Source: a virus. From it: a stretch of 42,246 bases of DNA. Below, one piece after another: positions 1 to 42,246 of this stretch. The number at the start of each line of letters is the position of its first letter. The first letter of the stretch is position 1. The position numbers and the translations under genes were made by a program. The stretch spans positions 1 to 42,246 of IMG/VR virus record IMGVR_UViG_3300027917_000009. One strand, 5' to 3'. Under the pieces are notes generated by a model, which saw only the letters and a list, made by a program, of their open reading frames with translations, searched no databases and had not been told where the DNA came from.

Positions 1-99
1 CATACCGCGGATCGATAAGGAGATTATGTGGGCTTCACAGAAGCGCTGGGAAGATGGTATTGACACCGGGAAGAAATTCGGCCGGGAGGAGCTGATGCA
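1..99. repeat. 99-bp terminal direct repeat (left copy)
   Basis: Identical to 42148-42246 at the right end. A gene reads in frame across the join, so this is most simply the overlap left by assembling a circular or circularly permuted genome, giving a unit length of 42,147 bp. A true short terminal repeat cannot be excluded from sequence alone, but it would split a coding gene. Confidence 0.9.
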
Positions 100-1588: not shown

Positions 1589-2464
1589 ATGGTCCGAGGA
1601 TGGGTACCCCTGCATCGGGCCACGGAACGGTTCCTCAGAACCAGACCAGCCTGGGAATCCAAAGTATTCAACCTCCTCGTATCTAAAATGTACTTCGAAT
1701 GGGGAGAAAAACGACGCGACCAGGATAGGCCCTACCAGAGATTTATTTATTGCAAAAGTCCATGCACTATCACTGTGCCGAAGATTATCAAATTAACGCA
1801 CGAGAAAATCAGCGAGAAACAAGTACGGCGAATGCTCAAAATGTATGTTGAACGTGGTATATTGAAGCTCGCCCGAAAGCCGCATAAAACCGAGATTTGG
1901 CTCTGCGATGTCCAGTCACTTTCCCAAAATATGTCCACTACTATGTCCAGTCAGAAAACAGTACCTACCTCACAGAAAACAAAAGACTTATCTTTTGATA
2001 AAAATAGAGGGATGTCCACTACTATGTCCAGTCACAAATCGAAATCATGTCCAGTCACTACCCGGCAACCCCATGAATCAAAAGAGGTTAAATACCCCTC
2101 TGATCTCTTCTTAAGAGATTATATAGATATTAATATATATTGTGAACAGGAAAAGAGGGACTTTTATAAAAATGTATGGCAGGGGTTTTTAAGAATAATG
2201 GAAGAAAAGTTCGATAGACATTCGTTCAATACTTGGATCAAACCACTTAGACCCATGATAAGAAAAAAAGACCAGGTCCTCATAATCTTCTCTCCTAATC
2301 CATCCTTCCACACATGGATAAAAGAAAACTACGGGGACCTGATCTCAAAAGCCGTCAGTTCGTTAAAATCAAAATATCAGGATTCGATCCAGATACGATT
2401 TCAACCCCTCAATCCTCCTCCGGATCCGCAGCACCAGCGACCTCGCTCCCGGGCCCGTCTGTAG
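1589..2464 (+). CDS. Replication initiator: winged helix plus DnaA domain I-like C-terminus
   Basis: The 291-residue product begins at an ATG 8 bases after GGAGG. Residues about 60-106 form a winged-helix module typical of phage replisome organisers (EKISEKQVRRMLKMYVERG, then a basic wing KPHKTEIWL). Residues 110-175 are a Ser/Thr-rich linker. Residues 196-260 align without gaps longer than one residue to DnaA domain I: W197 corresponds to E. coli W6, SFNTWIKPL to EFSMWIRPL, and FHTWIKENYGDLI to VLDWVRDKYLNNI. In DnaA this domain binds DnaB helicase and DiaA-type partners, so I infer that the protein binds the origin and recruits the host helicase. Six iterons lie inside the linker-coding region. 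The 3' end overlaps the convergent gene 2409-2876 by 56 bases. Confidence 0.8.
   Translation: MVRGWVPLHRATERFLRTRPAWESKVFNLLVSKMYFEWGEKRRDQDRPYQRFIYCKSPCTITVPKIIKLTHEKISEKQVRRMLKMYVERGILKLARKPHKTEIWLCDVQSLSQNMSTTMSSQKTVPTSQKTKDLSFDKNRGMSTTMSSHKSKSCPVTTRQPHESKEVKYPSDLFLRDYIDINIYCEQEKRDFYKNVWQGFLRIMEEKFDRHSFNTWIKPLRPMIRKKDQVLIIFSPNPSFHTWIKENYGDLISKAVSSLKSKYQDSIQIRFQPLNPPPDPQHQRPRSRARL
1908..2057. repeat. Six ATGTCCA iterons: probable replication origin
   Basis: ATGTCCA occurs at 1908, 1931, 1943, 2012, 2024 and 2047. Four copies extend to ATGTCCAGTCA (1908, 1943, 2024, 2047) and two to ATGTCCACTAC (1931, 2012). The spacings are 23, 12, 69, 12 and 23 bp, a mirror-symmetrical pattern close to multiples of one helical turn. 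The copies fall in all three reading frames of the host gene, so the DNA, not the peptide, is conserved. The 58-bp centre (1954-2011) is AT-rich and contains TATCTTTTGATA. An origin lying inside the initiator gene is the arrangement of phage lambda O. Confidence 0.75.
2095..2180. other. AT-rich stretch beside the iterons (candidate unwinding element)
   Basis: Immediately downstream of the last iteron the sequence becomes strongly AT-rich, with ATTATATAGATATTAATATA around 2118-2137 and further A/T to 2180. It stays coding. In iteron origins such a block next to the initiator array is the usual site of first strand opening. The role here is inferred from position and composition only. Confidence 0.5.
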
Positions 2465-9527: not shown

Positions 9528-9558
9528 TTGACAAATTTCAACTTTCAACTAATATACC
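9528..9558 (+). promoter_or_regulatory. Promoter with TTTCAAC direct repeat, before the nuclease gene
   Basis: TTGACA (9528-9533) is followed by AATTTCAACTTTCAACTAATATACC; the -10 is TAATAT or AATATA (9550-9556). TTTCAAC occurs twice in tandem (9536-9549). Nearly the same spacer is found in promoters on the minus strand at 16549-16577 and, in part, 16655-16683. Confidence 0.65.
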
Positions 9559-9576
9559 GACATGAAAGGAGGACAA

Positions 9577-10638
9577 ATGAGAAAAGCAGGACGATCTCTC
9601 GAGGTCATCACGGTGACCCAGTCATCGCAGGGATCCGAGAGAAAATGTTTGAGAGATTACAAGCTCTCGAGGATCGATGGTCTGAAGCTGAAGATCGACA
9701 AGCCGTCATTCAAATACGGCAAGGCCTTCCATGATATTCAGGCCAGGTACTTCGGCGGCGCCACCATCGAACAGTGCATCGATTACATGGAGCTGGTCCA
9801 GCTGCCCATGATGCCGGAAGATGACAGGAAGGGTTATGCCGGCCTGATCAAGGGCTACTTTTCCAAGACTGAAGAGGGCAAACCCTACGGGCTGCACCGC
9901 AGGGATCAGAGCCTTTACTTCCCTGAGGTCCGCATCGAAGTCCCGTTCATCGCCGGCCGTAAACAGAAAATGCACGGCGTGATCCTGAAGGGCGTGATCG
10001 ATCTGATCGCCTACGATTACTACGATCGTGAAGGCGAGCGCATGTACTATGCATGCCTGGTCGATCATAAAACCTCCACCAGGAAAATGGACCTGACCTT
10101 GCGGCAGTGGTCCTTCCAGCTGTACTACTACCGGCTGCTATTCACGACAGCAGTGGCGATCTACCGCGACAGGAAGAAGCTCCGCAAACAGTCCTCGTCC
10201 CTGCTGAAGGGATTCTCGATCGATCCACCGGAAGCCATCACCGACGATCTCATCGAGCGGATGATGGAACCCGAACCCCGCCTGGTGTACAACTACGCCA
10301 TCAAGTCCCAGGCCAAGAAGACCGAACCGGTCTACACCCCTGACAAATACCAACTGATCCAGGTCCCCAAACACAACAAGGAGCTCGAGGCCTTCATGAA
10401 CATTCGCATCGAGCGCCATGTCGCACGGATCCGGGAAGCGAAGCGCTTTGATCGCTGGCCGCAGGAACCGCTCAGCTGCTATGACGAAGCCTCCAAATTT
10501 TCCGAGTGCCAGTTCTATTCGAAGTGCGTCATGCACGACGATTCCAAGTACGTGGTCGGCGACCCGTGGGGTGAGCTGCGCCAAGCCCGGGGTGAGTCCG
10601 AAGCCAGCAATTTCTTTTCTGCGGAGAACGGGGGATAA
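9577..10638 (+). CDS. RecB/Cas4-like PD-(D/E)XK nuclease with Fe-S cluster
   Basis: ATG at 9577 is chosen over 9562 because AAAGGAGGA lies between them and the promoter would start transcription near 9563. The 353-residue product shows the RecB-family order: GKAFH (H52), EVPF (E121), GVIDLI (D142), LVDHKT (D163, K165) and QLYYY (Q181). Four cysteines fit a Cas4/AddB-type 4Fe-4S cluster: C24 (KCLRDYKL) and C301, C311, C317 at the C-terminus. Such enzymes resect DNA ends. It stands beside a Sak4-like ATPase, a pairing common in phage recombination modules, and would supply 3' single strands for annealing. Confidence 0.85.
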   Translation: MRKAGRSLEVITVTQSSQGSERKCLRDYKLSRIDGLKLKIDKPSFKYGKAFHDIQARYFGGATIEQCIDYMELVQLPMMPEDDRKGYAGLIKGYFSKTEEGKPYGLHRRDQSLYFPEVRIEVPFIAGRKQKMHGVILKGVIDLIAYDYYDREGERMYYACLVDHKTSTRKMDLTLRQWSFQLYYYRLLFTTAVAIYRDRKKLRKQSSSLLKGFSIDPPEAITDDLIERMMEPEPRLVYNYAIKSQAKKTEPVYTPDKYQLIQVPKHNKELEAFMNIRIERHVARIREAKRFDRWPQEPLSCYDEASKFSECQFYSKCVMHDDSKYVVGDPWGELRQARGESEASNFFSAENGG

Positions 10639-10660: not shown

Positions 10661-11413
10661 ATGGTAACAACATTACCCGAGAAGCCAGTAGCCAGAGATA
10701 CCACCACCATGCATGAAATCATCTGGCTCTACGCCCAGACGCGGTGGGGCAAGACGCGCTTCCTGTTCACCGTGAACTGTGTCACGGATAAAAATAAATC
10801 CGGGCACAACCTGGTCCTCGATTTCCACCAGGGCAAACAGACCCGGAATGAATCCGGATACAAGCTCACCGTGGAGGATTGGGATCACTATATCGAGATC
10901 GCAAAGGATCTCTACAAGTCGGGCGGCAAACAGTTCAGCTTCGTCAGCTGTGACCAGTTGGACGGCATGTATAACATGGCTGCCGCCTATCTTCTGAAGA
11001 AGCACAACATCACCAGCGGCTTCGCCCATGAGACGGACATCCCGTACAAGGGCACCAAGCTGGTGGTCCAGGAGGTTTACCGCTCACTTCTGAAGATCTC
11101 CAGTTTCGACTGGGTGAAGACAGTCTTCGTCACCAGCCAGGAGACCCTCAAAGATATCCAGCAGCGGAGCGCCTACCAGAAGACCCTGCCGGGTCCTCTG
11201 ACAGGAGCTGCAAACGAGGAGCTCATCAAGAAGCTGACGCCGCATTGCCTCGGGATCCTGTTCGGTGACAAAGAGACCAACGACCAGGGAGAGGAATCCC
11301 GGGTCTTCAGGCTCGACTCTTCCATGTTCCATTATGCAGGATTGAAAGTGGACGACGTTCCCGATACAATACCAGCAGACTGGAAAGAGTTGAGAAAATA
11401 CCTGAAGGTGTAG
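10661..11413 (+). CDS. Sak4-like RecA-fold ATPase (recombination)
   Basis: ATG at 10661 follows AAAGGAGGAGAAGCAT. The 250-residue product has Walker A AQTRWGKT (25-32), a Walker B-like FSFVSCD (D98) and VFVTSQE (156-161), which corresponds to the sensor strand of Sak4 and AAA_24-type proteins. Sak4 proteins are single-strand annealing factors with a RecA core that work with an SSB. The Walker A differs from the usual GxxxxGKT in beginning with Ala. It follows the RecB-like nuclease, supporting a joint role in recombination-dependent replication or repair. No phage SSB gene was recognised, so the host protein may serve. Confidence 0.7.
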   Translation: MVTTLPEKPVARDTTTMHEIIWLYAQTRWGKTRFLFTVNCVTDKNKSGHNLVLDFHQGKQTRNESGYKLTVEDWDHYIEIAKDLYKSGGKQFSFVSCDQLDGMYNMAAAYLLKKHNITSGFAHETDIPYKGTKLVVQEVYRSLLKISSFDWVKTVFVTSQETLKDIQQRSAYQKTLPGPLTGAANEELIKKLTPHCLGILFGDKETNDQGEESRVFRLDSSMFHYAGLKVDDVPDTIPADWKELRKYLKV

Positions 11414-11755: not shown

Positions 11756-11954
11756 TTGTTGTGATCTCCGGGCAATTAAAGCATCCGCGAAAAAAAAGGG
11801 AGAGAGAACGATTATCCGACCCAGCAAGGATGGAGGCTTTGATATCCTCTGTGTCCCCAAAAATGTTAAGCTGTCTGATCCTATCACCACAGAAGAGCGG
11901 GACACATACTTCGCCGCCTGGATGATGGCCATTACTAATTCCTGTTGTTGCTGA
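11733..11954 (+). CDS. Small cysteine-rich protein, 73 residues
   Basis: ATG at 11733 follows AAGGAGGTGCTG. The product begins with QCNCCDL and ends with NSCCC, placing three cysteines at each end with one more in the middle (ILCVPK); the core is basic then acidic. Such a layout could bind a metal or cluster by bringing the two ends together. It overlaps the YkgJ-like gene, which is also cysteine-rich, so the two may act together. No family is recognised. Confidence 0.6.
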   Translation: MSELTQCNCCDLRAIKASAKKKGERTIIRPSKDGGFDILCVPKNVKLSDPITTEERDTYFAAWMMAITNSCCC

Positions 11955-11968
11955 GAGGGGGTGACAAC

Positions 11969-12625
11969 ATGACCAGAAAACTACCACTGTTCAAGGACTA
12001 TGAAAGGAAGCCACGGAAGCAGGGTCCTCACGGTATGCTCGATGGGATTAAAATCAACATCGGGCTCGGCCGCCTGGTGGACTGGATCCGCAGGAAGAGA
12101 ACGAAGCGGAAACTGAAGAAGGGGTTCAAACGGCTAAAGGGCAAAACCTCCGTGAAGATTTCCAGCCCGTGGAAACCACCGAAAAAAGTCTTCGAACCAG
12201 AGGAAGGATTGAAGGCCAAGCCCATTATGGATCCGCCAAAAAAGATGGATTCCTTCGATCAAATAAAGCAGATCCTGGACGATGGCCGAGTTACTCCCGA
12301 ACTGCTATATACGGAGAAAAACATGCCAGAAGAATATCCAACCGATCCGGCACTGTGGCCGGAGGACAGAAAGCTGGTAAATGCAGATGGCTGTGAAATA
12401 GCCGATCTGATTGATGCAATCAAAGAGGTCGCCAGACGCCAACAGGCAGGGGATTCCCGCGATTACTGGGAAATTTTAAAAGAGGTCTATGATCTCCGAA
12501 AAATTCTCAATCGCTTTATCAACCTGCCTCAGGAACTGTGGGATGAATACGGCATCACGCTGTCATCTCATGGAATTAATGAGCTGATATGGAGGCTCAA
12601 GAAATTCCAGTTCCCGCCCAGCTAA
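11969..12625 (+). CDS. Unknown protein with very basic N-terminal region, 218 residues
   Basis: ATG at 11969 follows GAGAGGGGGTGACAAC. Residues 1-75 are strongly basic (RKPRKQ; IRRKRTKRKLKKGFKRLKGK), suggesting nucleic-acid binding. Residues 95-218 are helical and neutral to acidic (SFDQIKQILDDG; EIADLIDAIKEVARRQQ; EILKEVYDLRKILNRF). No catalytic motif is seen and no family is recognised. It closes the recombination block before the lipoprotein gene. Confidence 0.65.
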   Translation: MTRKLPLFKDYERKPRKQGPHGMLDGIKINIGLGRLVDWIRRKRTKRKLKKGFKRLKGKTSVKISSPWKPPKKVFEPEEGLKAKPIMDPPKKMDSFDQIKQILDDGRVTPELLYTEKNMPEEYPTDPALWPEDRKLVNADGCEIADLIDAIKEVARRQQAGDSRDYWEILKEVYDLRKILNRFINLPQELWDEYGITLSSHGINELIWRLKKFQFPPS

Positions 12626-12759
12626 TGAGCGATCTCTTCGGGGCGCGGCAGGGTTCGTCCCGGGTGGTATGGTAAGCAGTCGCAATCACTTGTTCGTAGC
12701 AGGGAGGAACGCGACAGCCTCTGTGCCGGCGCTGCGTCCTTCATTCAATGGAGGAAAAA

Positions 12760-14220
12760 TTGAAAGCATTGAGTTCTTTCCCCGTGGTTTTAGTAATCGC
12801 CTATTTTTTAGCAATTGGATCCTGTTGGAGTCAGCCGGATCCCGAGGACCCCGGGCAACCACCGCCCCAGGTCCCTGGACAACCACCGCCCCAGGTCCCA
12901 CCGTCTTCTCCTCACTTCTCTGTTGAGATCCCTGTCATCCATCAGACCTATGGTAAGCCATGGGTGGATGCATGTGATATGGATCGCGACGGTGACCTGG
13001 ACATAATATTAACCTATTGGCAGAAGCCGAACCAGCACCAGTACAAGGCTATTGAGGTATGGGAAAATACCGGCACCAGCTTTAAACCGCTCTGGTCAGA
13101 CGCCTGGGAGGATCCACGCCCCTTCACTTATGGCGCCCATGGGCCCTGTGCTGTTGCAGATTTCGGCGGAAAGGAAGGTGCAGAAATTGTTCTTGTTAGG
13201 TTTGAAGCTGGCCGCTACATGCTCCGCTTTTTGGATGCTCTCAATGGGCGTATCAAACGTGAAGTTGCGGTGCCATCTTGGACTGATATCACGAAGGGAC
13301 CGACGGCTGTACATCCTTGCAATATATCTCGGCTACGTGGCGATCATTATTCTGATGTGGTCGTGACCTGGCCAGATAAACAGGCCCTGACTGTACGCCG
13401 GCTTCGGTGTTATCGGGCCAGCAACAATGAGATGTTATGGGAAAATTTTCTCGAAGCTGAAGGTCGACACAATCCCCGCTGGTCCACTGACGAGATCACA
13501 GTCATAAGAAACTGGGCCGACAAGCGGGACGCTTTCTTCTTCGGCTTCGGCGTGATCGGTCCGGAGGGCGACGGATCCCTCGGTCAACCGGTGGGATATC
13601 ACAGCCCTTCGGTCGAATGCCTCAAGTGCAATGGCGAGGACCTGGATACCAGGGATCCTTGGACACAGGCCGTGACATACGGGACGCAGACCTATCCCAT
13701 CATGTTCGCCGCCTCCGGAGGAGAGATCTACTATTATCCAGAGGTCACCACCTGGTGCAAAGATGGCACCCCTGAGGATCCCCGGCTCTGCTATTGGGAA
13801 TATAGGGAGAACGGCATTTTCGTTCCGCCCATCACCGATATGATTATGGATCTCACCAGGCTGAGTCAGGATAAAATCCTCTTTACCATCTGGCGAGGAG
13901 AAGGCACTTATGAGGCCGGCATCTTTAACCGGCGCGTCCTGGAATTTTACGAGCAGCGCGTATTCGAACCCAACCCGGCCAGCATCTTTAACCGCATTGA
14001 ATGGGATGGGGACAAGAAGACCGCGGAGATCCTGGGACGCAAAGGAGTCTACAACGAAGAGTTCGATCTGATCCATAAGCGGATCGGAAATTTCAATCTT
14101 GGTAACCGCTTCTGTTTCGATTTCGATGGGGACGGCCGGCAGGAGTACGGCTTCTTCCAGAGCATCAAAGGGATCGAGAAAAAGAAGGTTATCTTCGTCG
14201 CAAACAAGGAGGACAAATGA
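12760..14220 (+). CDS. Exported FG-GAP-like beta-propeller lipoprotein
   Basis: The TTG at 12760 is preferred: GGAGGAAAAA stands 5-10 bases upstream, and it gives a clean signal sequence; the in-frame ATG at 12748 has no ribosome-binding site. Residues 1-22 form a hydrophobic leader ending IGSC, a lipobox-like site (C22). A Pro/Gln linker follows, encoded by a 24-bp tandem repeat. The rest shows repeated beta blades with calcium-loop motifs: DMDRDGDLD (73-81) and FDFDGDGRQEYG near the C-terminus, as in FG-GAP/VCBS propellers, often adhesive or ligand-binding. About 486 residues. A membrane-anchored surface protein made from a non-late region could alter the infected cell surface, for instance excluding other phages. 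Confidence 0.65.
   Translation: MKALSSFPVVLVIAYFLAIGSCWSQPDPEDPGQPPPQVPGQPPPQVPPSSPHFSVEIPVIHQTYGKPWVDACDMDRDGDLDIILTYWQKPNQHQYKAIEVWENTGTSFKPLWSDAWEDPRPFTYGAHGPCAVADFGGKEGAEIVLVRFEAGRYMLRFLDALNGRIKREVAVPSWTDITKGPTAVHPCNISRLRGDHYSDVVVTWPDKQALTVRRLRCYRASNNEMLWENFLEAEGRHNPRWSTDEITVIRNWADKRDAFFFGFGVIGPEGDGSLGQPVGYHSPSVECLKCNGEDLDTRDPWTQAVTYGTQTYPIMFAASGGEIYYYPEVTTWCKDGTPEDPRLCYWEYRENGIFVPPITDMIMDLTRLSQDKILFTIWRGEGTYEAGIFNRRVLEFYEQRVFEPNPASIFNRIEWDGDKKTAEILGRKGVYNEEFDLIHKRIGNFNLGNRFCFDFDGDGRQEYGFFQSIKGIEKKKVIFVANKEDK
12856..12899 (+). repeat. 24-bp tandem repeat in the lipoprotein linker
   Basis: CAACCACCGCCCCAGGTCCC occurs at 12856-12875 and again at 12880-12899, coding the doubled peptide GQPPPQVP behind the lipid-modified cysteine. 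Repeat number could vary by slippage and change the linker length. Confidence 0.85.
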
Positions 14221-14546
14221 AATTAACCACCGTCAAATATATTGACATCTCGGAGGTCTCTCTGCGGAAACTGGTGAAGGAGCTCGACGCATTACATGAG
14301 CTCCCGAAGCCGCCGGCCACCGCCACGCTCACTACCACTGACACGAACATCTTCTTCCGGGTCCCCCTGGAATTCCAGAAGGTGGACCAGGAGACCCTGT
14401 TCGGAGATGGTAAAGAGGGAGACGTAGGTCTCCAGCCCGTGACCGAGGATACGGTTGATGGTTACGATGAGACCGGACCGCATGGCGAGACATATGGTCC
14501 CACCGAGCCCACGCATGCCGCGGAGATCCCCAGTGAAGATCTATAG
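14217..14546 (+). CDS. Unknown protein with acidic tail, 109 residues
   Basis: The ATG overlaps the lipoprotein stop (ATGA) and is preceded by AAGGAGGACAA, so it is translated with it. Residues 1-70 look like a small alpha/beta domain (TVKYIDISEVSLRKLVKELDAL; TLTTTDTNIFFRVPLEF). The last 35 residues are Glu, Thr and Gly-rich and probably disordered. No family is recognised. It overlaps the resolvase gene by 14 bases. Confidence 0.65.
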   Translation: MKLTTVKYIDISEVSLRKLVKELDALHELPKPPATATLTTTDTNIFFRVPLEFQKVDQETLFGDGKEGDVGLQPVTEDTVDGYDETGPHGETYGPTEPTHAAEIPSEDL

Positions 14547-15381
14547 CATTGTCACATTCGACCCGGGGAATGACGGAGGCGTTGGCCATGCCATTCTCCG
14601 GGTCTATCCTGAGGAGGGACGCGCCGAGATCGATCCCATCAATGTCTGGATCATGCCATATGTCGTCGAGACCGTTGAGCGGAAGACGAATATCCAATGG
14701 AACAAGGCCCATCCGGACAAGAAAAAGAAACCCGAAAGCTACAAGCGCAGATCCACAGACCATCGAGGCCTGACTCTGGCCATGAAAGAAATCGTTAAGC
14801 ACACCAGGCGGCTGGAAGAAAACATGCATAATAACGGACAGCTCAACCGGGCCCTGACAATTCCAATCATAGCGTTTGTTGAGAAAGTGAATCCTTACAG
14901 CTATTTCTTCGGAGGGCAAAAAGCAGCACAGAAAATAGGTCCGAAGCGATCGGACCCTTGGAGCATGCAGGGCGCACCTGGTGACGGCGGAGAGGGCCAG
15001 GCACCACAGCAGGGTAATATCTTCCAGAGCCCCCACCAGGTGTGGGCCTTCGCTGGTTCAGTGCATTCAATAAAGCAGGTCTTGGCGGATTACAACATCA
15101 AAGGGGTCGAGGTCACGCCCCAAGCTTGGCAGAAGCACTGCTTCCCGCACTCCCCGCTCCCGAAGCGGAGTCCGAAAACGGAGGCACAGCGCAACCAAGC
15201 GATGGCCACCAGGCTCACGGCCCTCTTTCCCCTCTTCCCATTCCCAAAGCGTACGCCCCGGGCTAAGACCCTTCATACCGGAGGCGTGGTGGCGGGACTG
15301 CTATTCGATTATGCCAAAACCCATGTTTTGAATCAGGTTCTAACGGCAACCTACAACCAGGAACAGGCAAGATCGATATAA
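14533..15381 (+). CDS. RuvC-like Holliday junction resolvase (RNase H fold)
   Basis: GTG at 14533 follows CGGAGATCCCCA; starts farther upstream lie inside the preceding gene. The 282-residue product opens with FDPGNDGG (D10), the first acidic site of the RuvC fold, then IIAFVEKV (E117), and AGSVHSIKQVLADY with VTPQAWQKH, the usual third part of phage RuvC-like proteins. The C-terminal helix reads HTGGVVAGLLFDYA (248-261); in active enzymes this position normally has HxxADAL, and the catalytic Asp appears replaced by Val. It is longer than cellular RuvC because of inserted segments at 55-105 and 130-170. It would process recombination or replication branches before packaging. Confidence 0.65.
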   Translation: MKIYSIVTFDPGNDGGVGHAILRVYPEEGRAEIDPINVWIMPYVVETVERKTNIQWNKAHPDKKKKPESYKRRSTDHRGLTLAMKEIVKHTRRLEENMHNNGQLNRALTIPIIAFVEKVNPYSYFFGGQKAAQKIGPKRSDPWSMQGAPGDGGEGQAPQQGNIFQSPHQVWAFAGSVHSIKQVLADYNIKGVEVTPQAWQKHCFPHSPLPKRSPKTEAQRNQAMATRLTALFPLFPFPKRTPRAKTLHTGGVVAGLLFDYAKTHVLNQVLTATYNQEQARSI

Positions 15382-15423
15382 AAAAATCCCCGGGGCGGTC
15401 TCAAACCCCGGGGATATTTTTTT
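15379..15423. terminator. Bidirectional intrinsic terminator
   Basis: ATCCCCGGGG (15386-15395) pairs perfectly with CCCCGGGGAT (15406-15415); A7 precedes and T7 follows. It sits between the convergent ends of the plus-strand resolvase gene and the minus-strand gene 15436-16407 and would stop transcription from both sides. Confidence 0.9.
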
Positions 15424-16654: not shown

Positions 16655-16683
16655 AGTATAGACGTTGAAAGCCTATTTGTCAA
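16655..16683 (-). promoter_or_regulatory. Near-consensus promoter for the short RNA
   Basis: Minus strand TTGACA (16678-16683), 17-bp spacer ending CTTTCAACGTC, TATACT (16655-16660). The spacer shares CTTTCAMCGTCTAT with the promoter at 16549-16577. Its -35 lies within the last codons of the gene 16673-17179. Confidence 0.8.
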
Positions 16684-17179
16684 GAGGTTTTTCTACTTTT
16701 TCCGGAGGAGCTGATCCTCGCGGTGGAGGTACTTCAAAATGAACCTCAATCGGAGGCCTCGGGACACAGGCATCGAAGTATTCATTTTCCTGTGTGTCTC
16801 CTGGCTCTTCTCCTGGTTCATCTGGCAACAGTGTGCCTGGTCCAGTCTCGAGACGATCTTCCGGGAGCCCCGATGCGGCCTCGCAAAATGCTGTTACAAC
16901 AAACTTGGCATCTTTATTGCACAGCACTATCATACGCGTCATGTCGCCGGTGGCATCCGGAGGAACTTCCATTTTGAGGTTATAGGTGCCAGAATCATAG
17001 ATGTCGATATCAACTCCGGGGATGCTTGAATAATAAATGTAATATCCATCCGGAGCCGGATGGTTCTCATCGACGAGCCCCTTTGTGGCCTTCAAGGTTT
17101 TCCCTTCAGCCAGGAGCTGGTCCGGAGCGCTCGCCAGGAAACACAGAATCATCACCAGAATTATGGCGAATCTAAACAT
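16673..17179 (-). CDS. Exported protein with signal peptide, 168 residues
   Basis: ATG at 17179 (minus) follows GAGGAGGTAGC; an upstream in-frame start lies in the preceding small gene. Residues 1-24 are a signal peptide (MFRFAIILVMILCFLASAP, cleavage probably after LLA). The mature part has an N-terminal domain with YYIYYSSIPGVDIDIYDSGTY and a Pro/Glu-rich end (PPPRGSAPPEKVEKP). Cysteines in LCNK, FCEA and DACV could form disulfides in the periplasm. It is the last gene of the late block, next to a membrane protein, so an outer spanin-like or other lysis or envelope role is possible; no lipobox is present. No family is recognised. Confidence 0.65.
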   Translation of the reverse strand: MFRFAIILVMILCFLASAPDQLLAEGKTLKATKGLVDENHPAPDGYYIYYSSIPGVDIDIYDSGTYNLKMEVPPDATGDMTRMIVLCNKDAKFVVTAFCEAASGLPEDRLETGPGTLLPDEPGEEPGDTQENEYFDACVPRPPIEVHFEVPPPRGSAPPEKVEKPLDK

Positions 17180-17180
17180 G

Positions 17181-17333
17181 CTACCTCCTCTTTCTTTTCC
17201 GTCCCCGGCGCTTCTGGCTTGCCTTGATGGCCGCATGATGCCTGTGCGCTGCGGGACCGGTTGGATGAGTTTTAATTTTGCGGCCCTTCTTTTTACCATG
17301 ACAATGCCTCACAGTTCTACCAGTAACTGTCAT
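17181..17333 (-). CDS. Very basic 50-residue protein
   Basis: ATG at 17333 overlaps the upstream stop (ATGA) and is preceded by AAGGAGAATTTAAGGTC; the TAG stop lies in the ribosome-binding site of the next gene (GAGGAGGTAGC). The product is about one third Lys/Arg plus six His, with HGKKKGRKIKTH in the middle and KRRGRKRKRR at the end, and one Cys. This composition resembles small nucleic-acid-condensing or ribosomal-type peptides. Both junctions are tight, and the frame is fully open between them, which supports a real gene. Role unknown; packaging with DNA in the capsid or RNA binding are options. Confidence 0.6.
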   Translation of the reverse strand: MTVTGRTVRHCHGKKKGRKIKTHPTGPAAHRHHAAIKASQKRRGRKRKRR

Positions 17334-17635
17334 GACCTTAAATTCTCCTTCATCAGCTGAACAATCTGATCATCGAAGGGACAGGTTCGGACGGTATTGA
17401 TACTGCCATTCAGGCGATCCACAGCCTCGATAACTTTTTCACTCGAGTTGGAGGATTTCTCACAGGCCCTGGTATTGTCTTTCACCACTTCTAAAATAAT
17501 CGCTTCCCTTCCAATGAGACCATCTAGCAGTTTCGTTGTGTTTTTCTGGTGTGCCCTTACGATGAAGAAAACGCTGGTGCCCATGGTCGATGCGAACCCA
17601 ATTACAGCTACAATGATCTCTACCCAGTAGCTCAT
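17330..17635 (-). CDS. Single-span membrane protein with coiled coil (holin- or i-spanin-like)
   Basis: ATG at 17635 (minus) follows GGGAGGAGTACTG and overlaps the stop of the big internal virion gene (TGATG). The 101-residue product has one N-terminal transmembrane segment (WVEIIVAVIGFASTMGTSVFFIV, about residues 4-26 in all) and a long polar helical tail (TTKLLDGLIGREAIILEVVKD, then SSEKVIEAVDRLNGSI). An inner-membrane spanin or a holin regulator would fit, with the exported protein two genes on as a possible partner. Function is not proven by sequence. Confidence 0.6.
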   Translation of the reverse strand: MSYWVEIIVAVIGFASTMGTSVFFIVRAHQKNTTKLLDGLIGREAIILEVVKDNTRACEKSSNSSEKVIEAVDRLNGSINTVRTCPFDDQIVQLMKENLRS

Positions 17636-20600
17636 CAGTACTCCTCCCTCATGCGCTCGTACGAGGACCAAGCCTCTTCGAATTCTCTGTCGACCTCGCC
17701 TTCTTCTACAACGTCCTTCGGGTCTGGCTCGAATCCAAATCGCATGGTCTGATGATCGATGATCCACCAGAATTCCTCCTGGTCCGCTATTTTCCAGTCG
17801 AGAACCCGGTGTTGAAGCCGTCTTCTATTGCGCCAATATATCCGTAAAAGCCGTGGTTCGTTTTGTATCTTCATCCATTCGATGATGGCTCTCTTCGAGG
17901 GGATTCCGGCTTGGGTAGATTCCCACAGCTCCAGAGCTTCATTGTGCAGCTTTTGGGCTTCCTCTGTCCGGCCATGCTGGAGATGCCATTCTCCCTGATT
18001 GTAGGCCTGATATCCCAGCGCCCGGACATAATTCTCGTCATCAAGCCAGGTCGTCATATCCTCCCGGAGCTCGCGTTCTTTTTCTACCCAGCCAGGCGTA
18101 AGATCGAGAACCCGAAGGATCTCATCTTTTGCATTGCTCTGAATAATATTACCTGAAACGGGATGGATATATTGCCAGTTGCTCTCCATGGCATCGAGGA
18201 AATTAAAAACTTTATCATGCAGGATTCTGCCGGCCGGCAGCATCAGCCACAATCCTTTCTTCACGTTTCTGGCATACTGATCCCGCTTCCGCTTTGGACC
18301 GCCATCGATGAGGTTTCCTGCGAGCTTGAAAAAGTTATTAGCCATGTCAGCGAACGGCGAAAGGTGGGGAAGAAAGCCCTTCCCCACGAACGCCGCAAAT
18401 GACAAACCCAGGAGGGGTCGCCCGAAAGCTTTTGCCAGGGGATGGAACGCCAGCATGGCGGCAGACTTTTTCATGCCTCCATAGCGAGCTCCCCGATAGA
18501 TCATCTCGCGATAATAATTCGGAAAGGACCAGAACTGTAGCAGTAGATGTCCGACGATCGGGATCTTGAGGATAGGCGCTGCATCACTGGTGCCATACAG
18601 GAACTGGGTCTTCCCGGTTGATTCCCTGCCGTAGAGATCTGCCAGCTTATGAGTGTATTCCTGCTTCACTTCCGGGACCTTGGTGGCCCGGAGCTCCTTC
18701 TCCCAGGTTTTGGCCAGCCTGTTGACATCGTCTGTGAAGCCCTCTTTTCTCCAGTCGATTTTTCCACGGGCATTCTCGACCCGCTTATATCCACCGATAT
18801 AGATCGAGTTCCTCATCAGGGATTCAGCGAAGGTGAATGGAGAAATCAGGACATTATTGAAAAAAGTCCAGAGCCTCCTGGCGGCACCGGTCATGACATT
18901 CGGCGCCTCGAAATACGGTTGCCTGAACTGCTCTACCACCTGGGCATCTTTAGCCAGGGCTCTCATGCGCCGGCCTTCTTCTGTCGGAGCAATCCATAAG
19001 CCCAAGCCTTTGGCCAGATTCTTCGATCCGATCTGAACGGCCCCGGGATAGAGCGCTGTAAGGTTTCTCACCATGGATCCCACGGCCGCCTGGAGGGCAC
19101 CATAATAGATTCTGCCGGCCACGAGCTGAGAGAAAGATTTCATCCAGCCAGGCATGACATCGTCCCGGACCCCGATATACTCGCGCAAGTACCGGTCCAG
19201 CATCTTCCCTCTGTGCTCGGGCAGGAATTCTCTCTTCGCTCGCATACGCTGGAAGGGTGCCTCGAGCCACCTGGCCTTCTCCATCAGGTAGAGATACATG
19301 GTGAGCGAATCGGCCAAATTTTCTGGATCGATATGAAGTTTTTTTGCCCTGGTCCACGGGCGCCGGAGCATGTGCGGAAGTTTTTTAACGACCACCCCTT
19401 TGGATCTCAGGGTGTCATGGATCCCCGTAACATAATTTTCCTTTATCCGGACTGTTCCATCGGCCATCTTCAGGCCGCCCATGAATGCATAATTATCGTC
19501 CTTGACATAGCCATCCCAGATCTCTCTGGCCACTTCAGCCAGGCGAGCTTCCCGGGGTTTCAATCCGGGGATCGCCGCCTGGGCCTCTTCGAAATTTTTA
19601 AACTCATGGATCCGCTTTAAGTATGCAATGGCTCTTTTATTGTTTATGATCCCCCAGCCTATGGCTTTTGATATCTGTGCAAATTTCTGGGTGATGGCAT
19701 TCTGGAAATTGATCCGGCCCAGCTGGAGATCTGGCCAGCCCACGCCATCTGTTGCGTATCTCTTTGAGGTGAACATATGCGATGAGATCACATCACTGAG
19801 AAGGCCCAGCCTGGCGGCTTCATCCGCCTTCACGAATGCCCGGAAGACAGGCGTCGGCGACAGCTCCCCTGTCTTTTTATTCATGGGATAGAATCCCACT
19901 TGGTACGTGGACTGGTAGGGATCCGCCAGATCCTCGGGCAGACGAACCCACTTCCCTTCCATCTCAAGATCCCGGACCACCCGGTCTGTGAGCTTCTGGA
20001 TTTCTGAATAAGGCATCTCTTTCAGGCTTTCGATACTCTTTCCGCCCAAGTAGCGCTGATTAAAATTCGTGACTTCGGATGGCGTAGGATCTGTCTCGAC
20101 GACCTCTTCAGTGATCTCCTCGATGATCTTTTTGGTTTTCTCTTCCTGGGTGAGGCTCCTCTTTTCATGGACCTTCAGGTAGACCGTTTTCCTAATTTGC
20201 TGGAGCGTCTGGATGGCGCGATATTTTACCGTCTTCGGAGGCTCGATGATTCCCCGCTTGATACCTATGACTTCCGCATATTCAGGAGCGAAGACCTTGG
20301 CCATCCTGTAATGGAAATGGTCGCCGATTTTCGCATGACCTTCTGGCGTCAGGTTCTCGAAATGGGTAATGAGCTCCGGATTTTCTTTCAGCTCCTTCAT
20401 GATCCGCTCGACTTCGGCCAAGCTCTGCTGCCGGGATTTTGGGATTTTCTCCAGCATTTCCTTGGGTATGCGCTCTACTGAGGTCCTCCGGAGATAGCCT
20501 TCAGCCTCGTATTTATAGGCGTGTCTGGCCTCGCTGGCGGTAATGGGGATCATTTCCATAGCCCCGACTAGGGCCATGCCATAAACGTGCTCCTGGAAGC

Positions 20601-21585
20601 TCGCTACGCGTCCATCCAGGGCAGCGCTGACATTGGTTAGGGTTTCCCCTTTTGCGACGATAGGGAGCGCTACACGGCCCAGACGGCCCATATTAGCGGT
20701 GGCCACGGATGAATAGCCGCCGGCCACGCCCATCGCCACTCCTACGGCCCCTCCTTTGAGGCCGGCCTCGACGACATCTCCGAAAGTGGCATCCTCTTCT
20801 GCGCCGGCCTTAATAGCCTCTCCGGTGCTGAAAGTTATCCCTGAATGACCCATGGATTCGGCTACATGTTTCAGAAATTTTCTGACAGCCGGCCCCCCCT
20901 GCGTTTTGATGGCAGAATAAGAGGTCTTCAGCCCTCTGTATATCTGCGGAATGCTCCTGCCCATCGTCTCTTTGGCCAGTCCAGACCCGCCGACATACCC
21001 TGGGAGATCTCCCAGGACGGTCAGGAGGCCGATAGCGAGCGCTTTATGGAATGGCTGAGATGCGGCTGTGAGGGCGGTGTGTCGCTCACCATGTTCGTAA
21101 ATGCGCTGTGTCAGGGACTTCTCCCCTTCTTCGACAGTGAATTCTTTGAGCACGGGGATCCGCTCGAGGATAGGATCAATCCTTTCTGCCGCATCCTGGG
21201 AGATGCGGGTGAGGCTTCCAAGAAGATTATGGCGATAGCTGTAGGAAAAGACCTCGCCCCAGGTCATCTCCGGAGCACCTGGATCCGTTTGTTTTTCTTT
21301 GAACAGAAATCCCGGATCCCCCGGATGAGTCAGCAGCCATGGTTTGGTATAGTCCTTATCATCCTCGCTGATCTTCATCTCGAGCAGTGGCTTAATCCAG
21401 CTCTCCTCGAGGTCCACTTCACTGACCGGCCTGAGGTCGATCCCTTCTTCACCCATGCCGTAGTTGAGCGTGGCCGTCTCGATATCTTCCCTGATGTCGA
21501 TGGGTTCTTCTCCGCCAGGCAGACCCTTCTCCTGGTCCGTCGTGATCAGCAGATCCTCTAGAATATCGTCAAGATCGTCCGGCAT
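17635..21585 (-). CDS. Large internal virion / DNA-ejection protein, 1316 residues
   Basis: The ATG at 21585 shares its A with the upstream TAA (TAATG). The largest gene of the window, it occupies the place of the internal core proteins of T7-like podoviruses, at the end of the structural block. The N-terminal 110 residues are acidic; residues about 185-330 hold several hydrophobic or glycine-rich stretches (ALAIGLLTVLGDLPGYVGG, GAVGVAMGVAGGYSS) that may insert into membrane; the middle is mixed helical; residues 1085-1135 include VGHLLLQFWSFPNYY and LLGLSFAAFVGKGFLP. No lysozyme or transglycosylase motif was recognised. By context it forms part of a channel for DNA ejection. Confidence 0.7.
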   Translation of the reverse strand: MPDDLDDILEDLLITTDQEKGLPGGEEPIDIREDIETATLNYGMGEEGIDLRPVSEVDLEESWIKPLLEMKISEDDKDYTKPWLLTHPGDPGFLFKEKQTDPGAPEMTWGEVFSYSYRHNLLGSLTRISQDAAERIDPILERIPVLKEFTVEEGEKSLTQRIYEHGERHTALTAASQPFHKALAIGLLTVLGDLPGYVGGSGLAKETMGRSIPQIYRGLKTSYSAIKTQGGPAVRKFLKHVAESMGHSGITFSTGEAIKAGAEEDATFGDVVEAGLKGGAVGVAMGVAGGYSSVATANMGRLGRVALPIVAKGETLTNVSAALDGRVASFQEHVYGMALVGAMEMIPITASEARHAYKYEAEGYLRRTSVERIPKEMLEKIPKSRQQSLAEVERIMKELKENPELITHFENLTPEGHAKIGDHFHYRMAKVFAPEYAEVIGIKRGIIEPPKTVKYRAIQTLQQIRKTVYLKVHEKRSLTQEEKTKKIIEEITEEVVETDPTPSEVTNFNQRYLGGKSIESLKEMPYSEIQKLTDRVVRDLEMEGKWVRLPEDLADPYQSTYQVGFYPMNKKTGELSPTPVFRAFVKADEAARLGLLSDVISSHMFTSKRYATDGVGWPDLQLGRINFQNAITQKFAQISKAIGWGIINNKRAIAYLKRIHEFKNFEEAQAAIPGLKPREARLAEVAREIWDGYVKDDNYAFMGGLKMADGTVRIKENYVTGIHDTLRSKGVVVKKLPHMLRRPWTRAKKLHIDPENLADSLTMYLYLMEKARWLEAPFQRMRAKREFLPEHRGKMLDRYLREYIGVRDDVMPGWMKSFSQLVAGRIYYGALQAAVGSMVRNLTALYPGAVQIGSKNLAKGLGLWIAPTEEGRRMRALAKDAQVVEQFRQPYFEAPNVMTGAARRLWTFFNNVLISPFTFAESLMRNSIYIGGYKRVENARGKIDWRKEGFTDDVNRLAKTWEKELRATKVPEVKQEYTHKLADLYGRESTGKTQFLYGTSDAAPILKIPIVGHLLLQFWSFPNYYREMIYRGARYGGMKKSAAMLAFHPLAKAFGRPLLGLSFAAFVGKGFLPHLSPFADMANNFFKLAGNLIDGGPKRKRDQYARNVKKGLWLMLPAGRILHDKVFNFLDAMESNWQYIHPVSGNIIQSNAKDEILRVLDLTPGWVEKERELREDMTTWLDDENYVRALGYQAYNQGEWHLQHGRTEEAQKLHNEALELWESTQAGIPSKRAIIEWMKIQNEPRLLRIYWRNRRRLQHRVLDWKIADQEEFWWIIDHQTMRFGFEPDPKDVVEEGEVDREFEEAWSSYERMREEY

Positions 21586-37672: not shown

Positions 37673-38530
37673 ATGTCGAAAATGTATTTGATGGTTGGAA
37701 ATGTCGGCGCCGGCAAATCGATTTTAGCACGTAAGCTGGCGCTGAAAAACTGTGTCGTCGTCAGCATGGATGAGATCCAGAAGATGACTGGCGGCGGCAT
37801 CTACGGTCTGTATGACAGCAAGAAGAAGGAATTCTATCGTGCTGTCGAGATGACCGCCGTTGTTGGAGCCCTGAAGTCCGGTCTCGATATCGTGATCGAT
37901 CGCACCTGCATGGGCGCCAAGACACGGGAGACCTTCATCGAGAAGGCTGTCCAGTATAAAGCCGAAGAGATCATCTGCTTTGATTTCGGTCCAGGGGAGG
38001 AAGGGTTCGAGCTCCGCAACCGGTTGAAAGATACTCGCGGGATCCCGGAGCAGACCTGGCGCGAAGTCTTCGCGATGATGAAGGGCCAGTACGAAAAGCC
38101 GGTCCTCGAGGAGGGCATCACGAAGATTTACGAGGGGCCGAAAAAGTTCACCTTTTATGCTTTTGATTTCGACGGCACCCTGGTCAAGAATGCCTTCCCG
38201 GATATCGGAAGGATAAACAAGCCATGGGCAGATCACCTGGTGAGCCTCTGGCAGGACCTGAACAACATCCTCATCATATGGACCTGCCGCACAGGCGACG
38301 AGCTGGTCCAGATGAAAAGTTTTCTCCTGGCCAGCCGGCTTCCTTTTGATTACATCAATGAGAATCCCCTGGTAGATTATGGTGGCCGCAAACTTTTCGC
38401 GCATGTATATTACGACGATCGTGCGGCACAGAATCCATTGCCGGCACAGACACCGGCAGGAGGTGAAAATGAACCCAGAGAGCGAGAGCAAACCCAGGTC
38501 GTTCCGGGATCTCCGGGCAAAAAGAGGTAA
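37673..38530 (+). CDS. Polynucleotide kinase / 3'-phosphatase (T4 Pnkp-like)
   Basis: ATG at 37673 follows GGAGGAGCTTGA. Residues 1-150 are a P-loop kinase with GNVGAGKS (9-16), SMDEIQ (31-36) and DRTCMG (76-81). Residues 160-255 are a HAD phosphatase with DFDGT (165-169), IIWTCRTGDE and VYYDDRA (245-251). This kinase-then-phosphatase order is that of T4 PseT, which heals tRNA broken by host anticodon nucleases. An RNA ligase, which T4 also needs, was not recognised. tRNA-Glu lies about 730 bp upstream. The C-terminal 30 residues are disordered and overlap the next gene. Confidence 0.8.
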   Translation: MSKMYLMVGNVGAGKSILARKLALKNCVVVSMDEIQKMTGGGIYGLYDSKKKEFYRAVEMTAVVGALKSGLDIVIDRTCMGAKTRETFIEKAVQYKAEEIICFDFGPGEEGFELRNRLKDTRGIPEQTWREVFAMMKGQYEKPVLEEGITKIYEGPKKFTFYAFDFDGTLVKNAFPDIGRINKPWADHLVSLWQDLNNILIIWTCRTGDELVQMKSFLLASRLPFDYINENPLVDYGGRKLFAHVYYDDRAAQNPLPAQTPAGGENEPREREQTQVVPGSPGKKR

Positions 38531-39172: not shown

Positions 39173-39323
39173 GAATCATTTCCGCGGGACACAGGATTTC
39201 CGCTGGACACACGTAGAAATTTTTTTTAAAAATATGCGGCCGATGTATGACCGCATCAAAAAAGGAATGCGTCTCTACAAGGCGCGGATACGAAAGGAAG
39301 AACATGATCTTCAAAATTTGTGA
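39141..39323 (+). CDS. Possible small basic protein, 60 residues
   Basis: A GTG at 39141, with AGAGGAGATACC upstream, would give a 60-residue product, ending RIKKGMRLYKARIRKEEHDL, that overlaps both neighbours. An ATG-initiated version is not available until residue 42. The reading frame between the neighbours is open and the region 39173-39303 would otherwise be empty, which is the main support. Role unknown; start uncertain. Confidence 0.4.
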   Translation: MILTIDRTTIENHFRGTQDFRWTHVEIFFKNMRPMYDRIKKGMRLYKARIRKEEHDLQNL

Positions 39324-39816
39324 AGACAGGGTGCTCGTGAAGAGAGATGAGCCAGTGAAGCAGGTCGGTAACATTGTCATCCCGGATGTCGCCCAGGCGA
39401 TTCCCCAGCTGGCGACGGTAATCTCTGTCGGTCCGGGCAGAAAACTCGAATCGGGGGAGCTGGTCGTTCCGCGGTTCAAGCCGGGCGATCGTGTCGTGAT
39501 CGGAAAATATTCCGGCACTGACATCGAGGAGCTGATCAAGGGAGAGCATCTCTGCCTGATGAGGGCGGAAGAGGTTCTCATGGTCGTTGAAAACGAAGAG
39601 GTCGAGGGTCTCGAGATCGTCGGCGAGGGTGCTGAGCGATACACTTCTCCCTCGATCGTTGCAACGCTGGAGGATGTCGTTGAAGAGGAAACCAACAAAA
39701 TCGGTGGAGCGTCACGCGAAGATTCAGAAGCTGGAGCGACGGATTCGAAGCGGAAAAAGGATGATGGAGATGGGCGTTCTGCCGTCGGTAAGGGCCCTGC
39801 TGGAGGAGCAGATTAA
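39304..39816 (+). CDS. GroES-like co-chaperonin with C-terminal extension
   Basis: ATG at 39304 follows AAAGGAAGAAC. Residues 1-96 match the Cpn10 fold: EDRVLVKRDEP (7-17), a mobile-loop region with NIVIPD (23-28), ATVISVGPGRKLESGE, FKPGDRVVIGKYSGTDIE (58-75) and LCLMRAEEVLMVV. Phage T4 gp31 is the known parallel, replacing GroES to fold the capsid protein. The normal length is about 97; here 74 extra residues follow, and the last 48 are read over another gene in a different frame. It would work with the host GroEL. Confidence 0.8.
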   Translation: MIFKICEDRVLVKRDEPVKQVGNIVIPDVAQAIPQLATVISVGPGRKLESGELVVPRFKPGDRVVIGKYSGTDIEELIKGEHLCLMRAEEVLMVVENEEVEGLEIVGEGAERYTSPSIVATLEDVVEEETNKIGGASREDSEAGATDSKRKKDDGDGRSAVGKGPAGGAD

Positions 39817-41951: not shown

Positions 41952-42246
41952 AATTTAAATTCAAAATGCATTACGTTCTACAGGGGAAGACAGATCTCCC
42001 GTGGTACTATGGGATAGCGCGGTATCAGACCTGGGATAAAAACGGTCATCCAAAGCCGCATATCTTGGTGATGCTGATGCCATTCTGCTTTTTTGTCAGG
42101 CTCTACGAGCGGCTCAAATTCAAAATCGTCTACAATCACATCTGGGCCATACCGCGGATCGATAAGGAGATTATGTGGGCTTCACAGAAGCGCTGGGAAG
42201 ATGGTATTGACACCGGGAAGAAATTCGGCCGGGAGGAGCTGATGCA
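41948..42246 (+). CDS. Unknown phage protein, N-terminal part (continues at base 1)
   Basis: GTG at 41948 overlaps the upstream stop (GTGA) and follows GGAGGCGCGGATC. It encodes VKFKFKMHYVLQG, WYYGIARYQTWDKNG, then HILVMLMPFCFFVRLYERL, and runs off the right end in frame. Through the circular join it continues at 2-328 to a total of about 175 residues. The middle has a hydrophobic stretch too short for a firm membrane segment. No family is recognised. Confidence 0.7.
   Translation, partial: MKFKFKMHYVLQGKTDLPWYYGIARYQTWDKNGHPKPHILVMLMPFCFFVRLYERLKFKIVYNHIWAIPRIDKEIMWASQKRWEDGIDTGKKFGREELM
42148..42246. repeat. 99-bp terminal direct repeat (right copy)
   Basis: Identical to bases 1-99; see the left copy. 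Joining the copies restores one intact gene and closes the genome at 42,147 bp. Confidence 0.9.

What the first reader, a model, noticed from the sequence alone, without database searches (positions are those of the whole stretch)
12760..14220. Phage-encoded lipoprotein with calcium-type beta-propeller motifs
Seen: signal sequence ending IGSC, a repeat-encoded Pro/Gln linker, then a beta-rich body with DxDxDG loops. It is in a non-late plus-strand operon between recombination genes. Known: phage lipoproteins such as T5 Llp block receptors; FG-GAP propellers bind ligands or surfaces. Inferred: it changes the surface of the infected cell, e.g. superinfection exclusion.
Basis: partly seen in the sequence, partly recalled or inferred. 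Interest (0 to 1): 0.65.

Follow-up and report, generated by a model that had tools for sequence, protein, structure and literature searches.

The report
Phage-encoded FG-GAP surface lipoprotein
An uncultivated bacterial virus carries, among its DNA-recombination genes, a gene for a lipid-anchored exported protein built from calcium-loop (FG-GAP) repeats; similar lipoproteins recur on other uncultivated phage contigs, and the protein probably changes the infected cell's surface, although that role is untested.

Summary
Window 12760-14220 (TTG start, GGAGG ribosome site) encodes 486 aa with a lipoprotein signal (…LAIGSC22), a Pro/Gln linker made by a 24-bp tandem repeat, and a body with one Pfam FG-GAP_3 hit above cut-off. 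Two strict DxDxDG loops are the only ones in the window's main proteins, and weaker in-register repeats exceed shuffled controls. A full propeller is likely but not shown: single-sequence AlphaFold2 models failed (pLDDT 36 and 33), and profile similarity vanishes without the first repeat. The gene has native codon usage and lies in a plus-strand operon (exonuclease, Sak4, this gene, RuvC-like resolvase) closed by a bidirectional terminator; structural genes are on the other strand. The contig has a 99-bp end overlap, so it is probably a complete 42.1-kb genome. It is an orphan: best TerL match 31%, and no full-length relative of the lipoprotein was found.

New: on other IMG/VR contigs FG-GAP proteins are often lipoproteins (21 of 45, against 5 of 386 other ORFs), including nine contigs with phage hallmark genes. 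None of nine tested matches a lipoprotein or FG-GAP family in PHROGs, and two tested are absent from 50,697 deposited phages. Surface remodelling, most simply superinfection exclusion, is the best guess (about 0.4).

The parts
9528..9555 (+). Promoter-like site (TTGACA-16-TAATAT) at the head of the operon that holds the lipoprotein gene
   Evidence: consensus scan only; 10 of 12 matches
9562..10638 (+). PD-(D/E)XK exonuclease (start may be ATG 9577, which has a GGAGG site)
   Evidence: PF12705 E=2.4e-10, phrog_1218 E=5e-9
10661..11413 (+). Sak4-like recombinase / AAA_24
   Evidence: phrog_124 E=2e-10, PF13479
11420..11755 (+). CxxCxxCC putative zinc/iron-chelating protein
   Evidence: PF03692 E=1.6e-6
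11945..12625 (+). Basic protein of unknown function, next upstream gene
   Evidence: no family
12750..12754 (+). Ribosome-binding site GGAGG, 5 bases before TTG 12760
12760..14220 (+). FG-GAP lipoprotein gene (486 aa; mature part 53.4 kDa, pI 5.1)
12760..12825 (+). Lipoprotein signal peptide (residues 1-21) and lipidated Cys22; lipobox I19-G20-S21-C22; +2 residue W
   Evidence: only such ORF in the window
12841..12899 (+). 24-bp tandem repeat x2.5 encoding the Pro/Gln tether
   Evidence: TRF score 90
12976..13170 (+). FG-GAP_3 repeat with calcium loop DMDRDGDLD (residues 73-137)
   Evidence: PF13517 above gathering cut-off
13156..13215 (+). Degenerate repeat ADFGGKEGAEIVLV (residue 133)
   Evidence: position-specific score, third-best site p<=0.003 against shuffles
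13327..13386 (+). Degenerate repeat SRLRGDHYSDVVVT (residue 190)
13996..14055 (+). Degenerate repeat IEWDGDKKTAEILG (residue 413)
14116..14175 (+). Second strict calcium loop DFDGDGRQE (residues 454-462)
14217..14546 (+). 109-aa gene whose ATG overlaps the lipoprotein stop (ATGA), own AAGGAGG site: probably co-transcribed and translationally coupled; function unknown
   Evidence: no family
14455..15381 (+). RuvC-like Holliday-junction resolvase (true start lies inside this ORF)
   Evidence: phrog_1770 E=0.006 and visible motif TFDPGNDGG; weak
15386..15415 (.). Bidirectional terminator-like hairpin between the operon and the converging minus-strand genes

Best explanation
The gene makes a phage-encoded lipoprotein, expressed with the DNA-replication and recombination genes before the virion genes. 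It is exported, cleaved before Cys22 and lipid-anchored. Its +2 residue is not Asp, so in a Gram-negative host sorting to the outer membrane is expected. A short Pro/Gln tether holds a globular FG-GAP domain, probably a calcium-binding beta-propeller, away from the membrane. The most likely use is to bind a surface molecule of the infected cell (the phage receptor or a surface glycan) so that further phages do not adsorb or inject: a superinfection-exclusion or surface-remodelling protein. Shown: gene, signal and lipobox pattern, tether, one FG-GAP repeat, degenerate further repeats, operon position, phage origin. Inferred: complete propeller, calcium binding, early timing, outer-membrane location, the ligand and superinfection exclusion.
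For: Unique lipobox ORF in the window; FG-GAP_3 above cut-off; two strict calcium loops and in-register weaker repeats; operon with exonuclease, Sak4 and resolvase, ended by a bidirectional terminator; late genes on the other strand; native codon usage, so a resident phage gene rather than a fresh insertion; 99-bp identical ends, so probably a complete circular assembly. Recurrence: FG-GAP ORFs on other IMG/VR contigs are lipoproteins in 21 of 45 cases against 5 of 386 neighbouring ORFs, Fisher p=7e-19, and nine such contigs carry gp23-type capsid, portal or TerL genes. Principle: phages do express exclusion lipoproteins early (PMC9586334).
Against: No functional data of any kind. Known exclusion lipoproteins are very small and lie next to receptor-binding protein genes; this one is large and does not. 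The fold is not confirmed: AlphaFold2 pLDDT 36 and 33, and profile similarity to viral FG-GAP lipoproteins disappears when the first repeat is removed. No homologue was found to show conservation. Host unknown, so even the presence of an outer membrane is assumed. In one other phage group the FG-GAP lipoprotein gene lies among tail genes, which hints at different uses.
Confidence: 0.4

Rival explanations
1. Surface adhesin or matrix-binding lipoprotein: it alters attachment or aggregation of infected cells, or binds polysaccharide, as a fitness (moron-type) gene, without blocking phage receptors.
For: FG-GAP repeats are common in secreted, adhesive and carbohydrate-associated bacterial proteins (general knowledge; L088 lies next to a glycoside-hydrolase-like gene). 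Some other phage FG-GAP lipoproteins sit in accessory/sugar-gene neighbourhoods: nucleotide-sugar epimerase, glycosyltransferase.
Against: No integrase or convincing repressor seen in the genes scanned, so a lytic phage would gain little from long-term surface change; the gene sits inside a replication/recombination operon.
Confidence: 0.25
2. Inhibitor or decoy in the periplasm or envelope: the domain binds a host envelope protein (protease, envelope-stress sensor, anti-phage defence component) to protect the infection.
For: Lipid anchoring with a tether also fits a periplasm-facing protein; T5 Llp and Rtp45 act from the periplasmic face (PMC9586334, PMC12685063).
Against: No target or homologue known; nothing specific points to it.
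Confidence: 0.15
3. Virion or tail-associated protein that carries a signal-like N-terminus.
For: In L135 a FG-GAP lipoprotein gene neighbours tape-measure, baseplate-hub and portal genes.
Against: Here the gene is on the opposite strand from all recognised virion genes and in an operon with recombination genes; the lipobox is clean.
Confidence: 0.08
4. Lysis protein of the outer-spanin type (lipoprotein with Pro-rich linker).
For: Rz1-type spanins also have a lipobox followed by Pro-rich sequence (general knowledge).
Against: Size 486 aa, FG-GAP body, no partner spanin next to it, no lysis genes recognised in the operon.
Confidence: 0.04
5. Host gene fragment, contamination or assembly artefact.
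For: FG-GAP proteins are typical of cells; 21 of 80 Pseudomonadota genomes have a hit at E<=1e-10.
Against: Codon usage like the other phage genes, intact operon with a stop-start overlap to the next gene, phage genes on both sides, identical contig ends.
Confidence: 0.03

Closest known systems
T5 Llp, Cor and Rtp45 superinfection-exclusion lipoproteins
   Same: Phage-encoded lipoprotein with probable expression before the virion genes; proposed effect on adsorption (PMC9586334, PMC12685063).
   Different: Those are very small (Rtp45 about 6 kDa), have no FG-GAP domain and lie next to the receptor-binding/tail-tip gene; this is a 53-kDa mature protein with a tether and FG-GAP repeats in a recombination operon.
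FG-GAP / VCBS-type calcium-loop repeat proteins (Pfam PF13517; integrin-alpha-like propellers)
   Same: One repeat above the curated cut-off with DxDxDG loop and the N-x-G-x-x-F turn; a second strict loop and degenerate repeats about 40-60 residues apart.
   Different: Most repeats are degenerate and below detection; complete propeller not confirmed.
FG-GAP lipoproteins on other IMG/VR contigs
   Same: Lipobox, low-complexity tether, FG-GAP body, some in contigs with phage hallmark genes.
   Different: Gly-rich rather than Pro/Gln tether, often about 800 aa, many repeats above threshold; only local similarity to this protein (best blastp E=0.001, to L168, which fails the lipobox test).

Membership tests
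Bacterial-type lipoprotein | Signal peptide with n-region charge, hydrophobic core and lipobox Cys | tested here: met
   MKALSSFPVVLVIAYFLAIGSC; (pattern test; no SignalP available)
Bacterial-type lipoprotein | Lipidation and membrane location | not testable with these tools
   needs labelling or fractionation
FG-GAP_3 (PF13517) | Score above the curated cut-off | tested here: met
   27.5 against 26.9 bits, residues 73-137; 30.4 bits on the fragment
FG-GAP beta-propeller | Several repeats in series (blades) | tested here: inconclusive
   degenerate repeats beat shuffles (p<=0.006), but no Pfam hit outside repeat 1 and no profile signal without it
FG-GAP beta-propeller | Predicted propeller fold | tested here: inconclusive
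   AlphaFold2 without relatives, pLDDT 35.6 and 33.1; no fold search made because such models give meaningless matches
Llp/Cor/Rtp45 exclusion lipoproteins | Very small lipoprotein, mature domain of a few kDa | tested here: not met
   mature part 53.4 kDa (size of Rtp45)
Llp/Cor/Rtp45 exclusion lipoproteins | Gene next to the receptor-binding/tail-tip gene | tested here: not met
   operon of recombination genes; recognised virion genes are on the other strand beyond the terminator
Llp/Cor/Rtp45 exclusion lipoproteins | Blocks phage adsorption when expressed | not testable with these tools
   bench test

The most novel reading that the evidence does not exclude
Large FG-GAP lipoproteins form a widespread, so far unrecognised class of phage proteins in uncultivated phages (T4-like, jumbo and orphan lineages) that re-coat the infected cell, excluding competitors by a tethered calcium-dependent propeller instead of the small receptor-jamming lipoproteins known from coliphages. 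The window phage is a member of this class with the gene in a replication/recombination operon.
Probability: 0.2. Interest if true: 0.75.

Novelty: new variant of a known kind. Interest (0 to 1): 0.48.

Why it matters
Exclusion and surface-remodelling proteins are mostly known from a few coliphages and are small. A large, tethered FG-GAP lipoprotein in a replication/recombination operon, with similarly built proteins recurring on uncultivated phage contigs and no matching lipoprotein or FG-GAP family in PHROGs for those tested, would widen the known ways in which phages alter the cell surface, and gives a testable set of genes.

Tried and rejected
Homologue searches that found none: exact-peptide scans of viral contigs and genome contigs; tblastn in phages and plasmids; 399 Pseudomonadota genomes (no positive control); 50 records with related TerL (no positive control). 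A scan with an alignment of this protein and three made-up generic FG-GAP motif fragments found nothing confirmed in viral contigs and one generic FG-GAP protein in a Gilvimarinus genome (L088; 32% over the repeat only). PDB sequence hits are consensus TPR designs matched by chance. Closest phage relatives: TerL 24-31% only, other proteins none or remote. AlphaFold2 twice, low confidence, so no fold search. hhalign against viral FG-GAP lipoproteins: score 36 against 22 or less for controls, but all signal came from repeat 1. Rejected: spanin, virion protein, contamination (see rivals). The 'second match' at 2739-2870 minus was not pursued; it aligns with the signal and Pro/Gln-rich stretch and is probably compositional.

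Full report
Observation. The first 22 residues form a classical lipoprotein signal, and among all ORFs of 50 aa or more on both strands no other passes the same filter. The following 24-bp repeat, 2.5 copies, encodes the Pro/Gln linker. The body contains two strict DxDxDG calcium loops, absent from the other window ORFs checked, and PF13517 is just above its cut-off.

Fold. A profile built here from 124 natural FG-GAP repeats finds the same first repeat and weak sites at 194 and 454. A 20-column score matrix finds further sites at 133, 159, 190, 413 and 453; the second to fifth best sites of the body beat shuffles (p<=0.006), and most other window proteins do not show this (one, 1589-2464, has p of 0.008-0.018 and another, 17635-21585, reaches 0.018, so the test is not perfectly specific). 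Four of these five sites are spaced compatibly with blades of about 40-60 residues. Against: Pfam sees nothing outside repeat 1, profile-profile comparison loses its signal without repeat 1, and AlphaFold2 without relatives gives no usable model. I call the propeller likely, not shown.

Context. The contig's first and last 99 bases are identical, so it is probably a complete circular (or circularly permuted) genome of 42,147 bp. TerL, major head protein and a virion structural protein were recognised on the minus strand. The order, with a 719-aa and a 242-aa protein downstream of the head genes and no clear tail-tube/tape-measure set, looks podovirus-like; that is inference. The plus-strand operon runs from a promoter-like site at 9528 through exonuclease, Sak4, CxxCxxCC protein, two small genes, the lipoprotein, a coupled 109-aa gene and a RuvC-like protein to a bidirectional hairpin terminator at 15386-15415. 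Codon usage of the lipoprotein gene is in the middle of the phage's own range. No integrase was recognised among the proteins scanned, but not every small ORF was scanned.

Relatives. The phage is an orphan. Its TerL has at best 31% identity in IMG/VR and 29% in deposited phages, and no other window protein matches the 80 TerL-bearing loci. No full-length relative of the lipoprotein was found in any collection searched. The two genome-search runs had no positive control, so they show little.

Wider class. Among ORFs whose 5' end is closed, 21 of 45 FG-GAP ORFs pass a lipobox filter, against 5 of 386 other ORFs of the same loci (Fisher p=7e-19). A looser filter flags 30 of 80, a few of them doubtful. 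Caveats: many of these FG-GAP ORFs are related to each other, so they are not independent; bacterial FG-GAP proteins may also often be lipoproteins; and IMG/VR can contain host DNA. So I asked which records carry phage hallmark genes. TerL was found in L134 (344 kb), L165 (374 kb), L177 and, weakly and with one internal stop, L155; gp23-type capsid in L135, L141, L150, L157 and L191; phrog_213 portal in L135, L141, L150, L157, L189 and L191. A second TerL family (PF03237) found nothing in 22 of these records, so most of the remaining contigs are not confirmed as phage by these tests. The control genomes gave no hit for the capsid and portal families. Nine of these ten FG-GAP ORFs pass the strict or the looser lipobox filter; L191 does not. 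Some lie next to tail genes (L135: tape measure, hub, portal), others in accessory-gene neighbourhoods with sugar-nucleotide and glycosyltransferase genes (L149, L190). Of nine FG-GAP proteins tested in PHROGs only one has a (weak) match, to a family of unknown function, and two tested are absent from 50,697 deposited phages. In the open-access literature searched I found no report on phage FG-GAP lipoproteins; that search is limited to open papers and exact words.

Mechanism. Known exclusion lipoproteins (Llp, Rtp45) act at the outer membrane and prevent receptor binding; many phages make such proteins early (PMC9586334, PMC12685063). By analogy a tethered binding domain on the infected cell could mask a receptor or glycan. 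It is not a member of the Llp/Cor class: size and gene position were tested and not met. It could work like one. The lack of homologues, host and structure keeps this at about 0.4.

Verdict. The unexpected part is the recurrence of FG-GAP lipoproteins on phage contigs, which deserves a proper census.

Noticed in passing
window 1-99 and 42148-42246: Identical 99-bp ends: the contig is probably a complete circular assembly of 42,147 bp.
   Followed up: yes
window 1589-2464 +: Replication-initiation-like protein with a C-terminal DnaA N-terminal domain (PF11638, E=4e-12): possibly recruits the host helicase by mimicking DnaA.
   Followed up: no
window 37673-38530 +: Polynucleotide-kinase-like P-loop domain (phrog_505) followed by a second domain that matches phrog_1238 and looks HAD-like: probably a two-domain nucleic-acid end-repair enzyme.
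   Followed up: no
window 39247-39816 +: Phage-encoded GroES co-chaperonin (phrog_3188) with a C-terminal extension.
   Followed up: no
window 16673-17299 -: A second exported-looking protein (MFRFAIILVMILCFLASAPDQLLAEG..., no lipobox) at the end of the late operon, preceded by a small membrane protein (17330-17767): candidate lysis or surface genes with no family match.
   Followed up: partly
L134, L165, L135, L141, L150, L157, L189, L155, L177: FG-GAP lipoprotein genes on contigs with phage hallmark genes, including two contigs above 340 kb.
   Followed up: partly
L135 9976-12459 and L189 439-2862: Similar gene order in two contigs: FG-GAP lipoprotein - oppositely oriented gene of about 290 aa (baseplate hub in L135) - 1340-aa gene (tape-measure-like in L135) - 565-aa portal-size gene.
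   Followed up: partly
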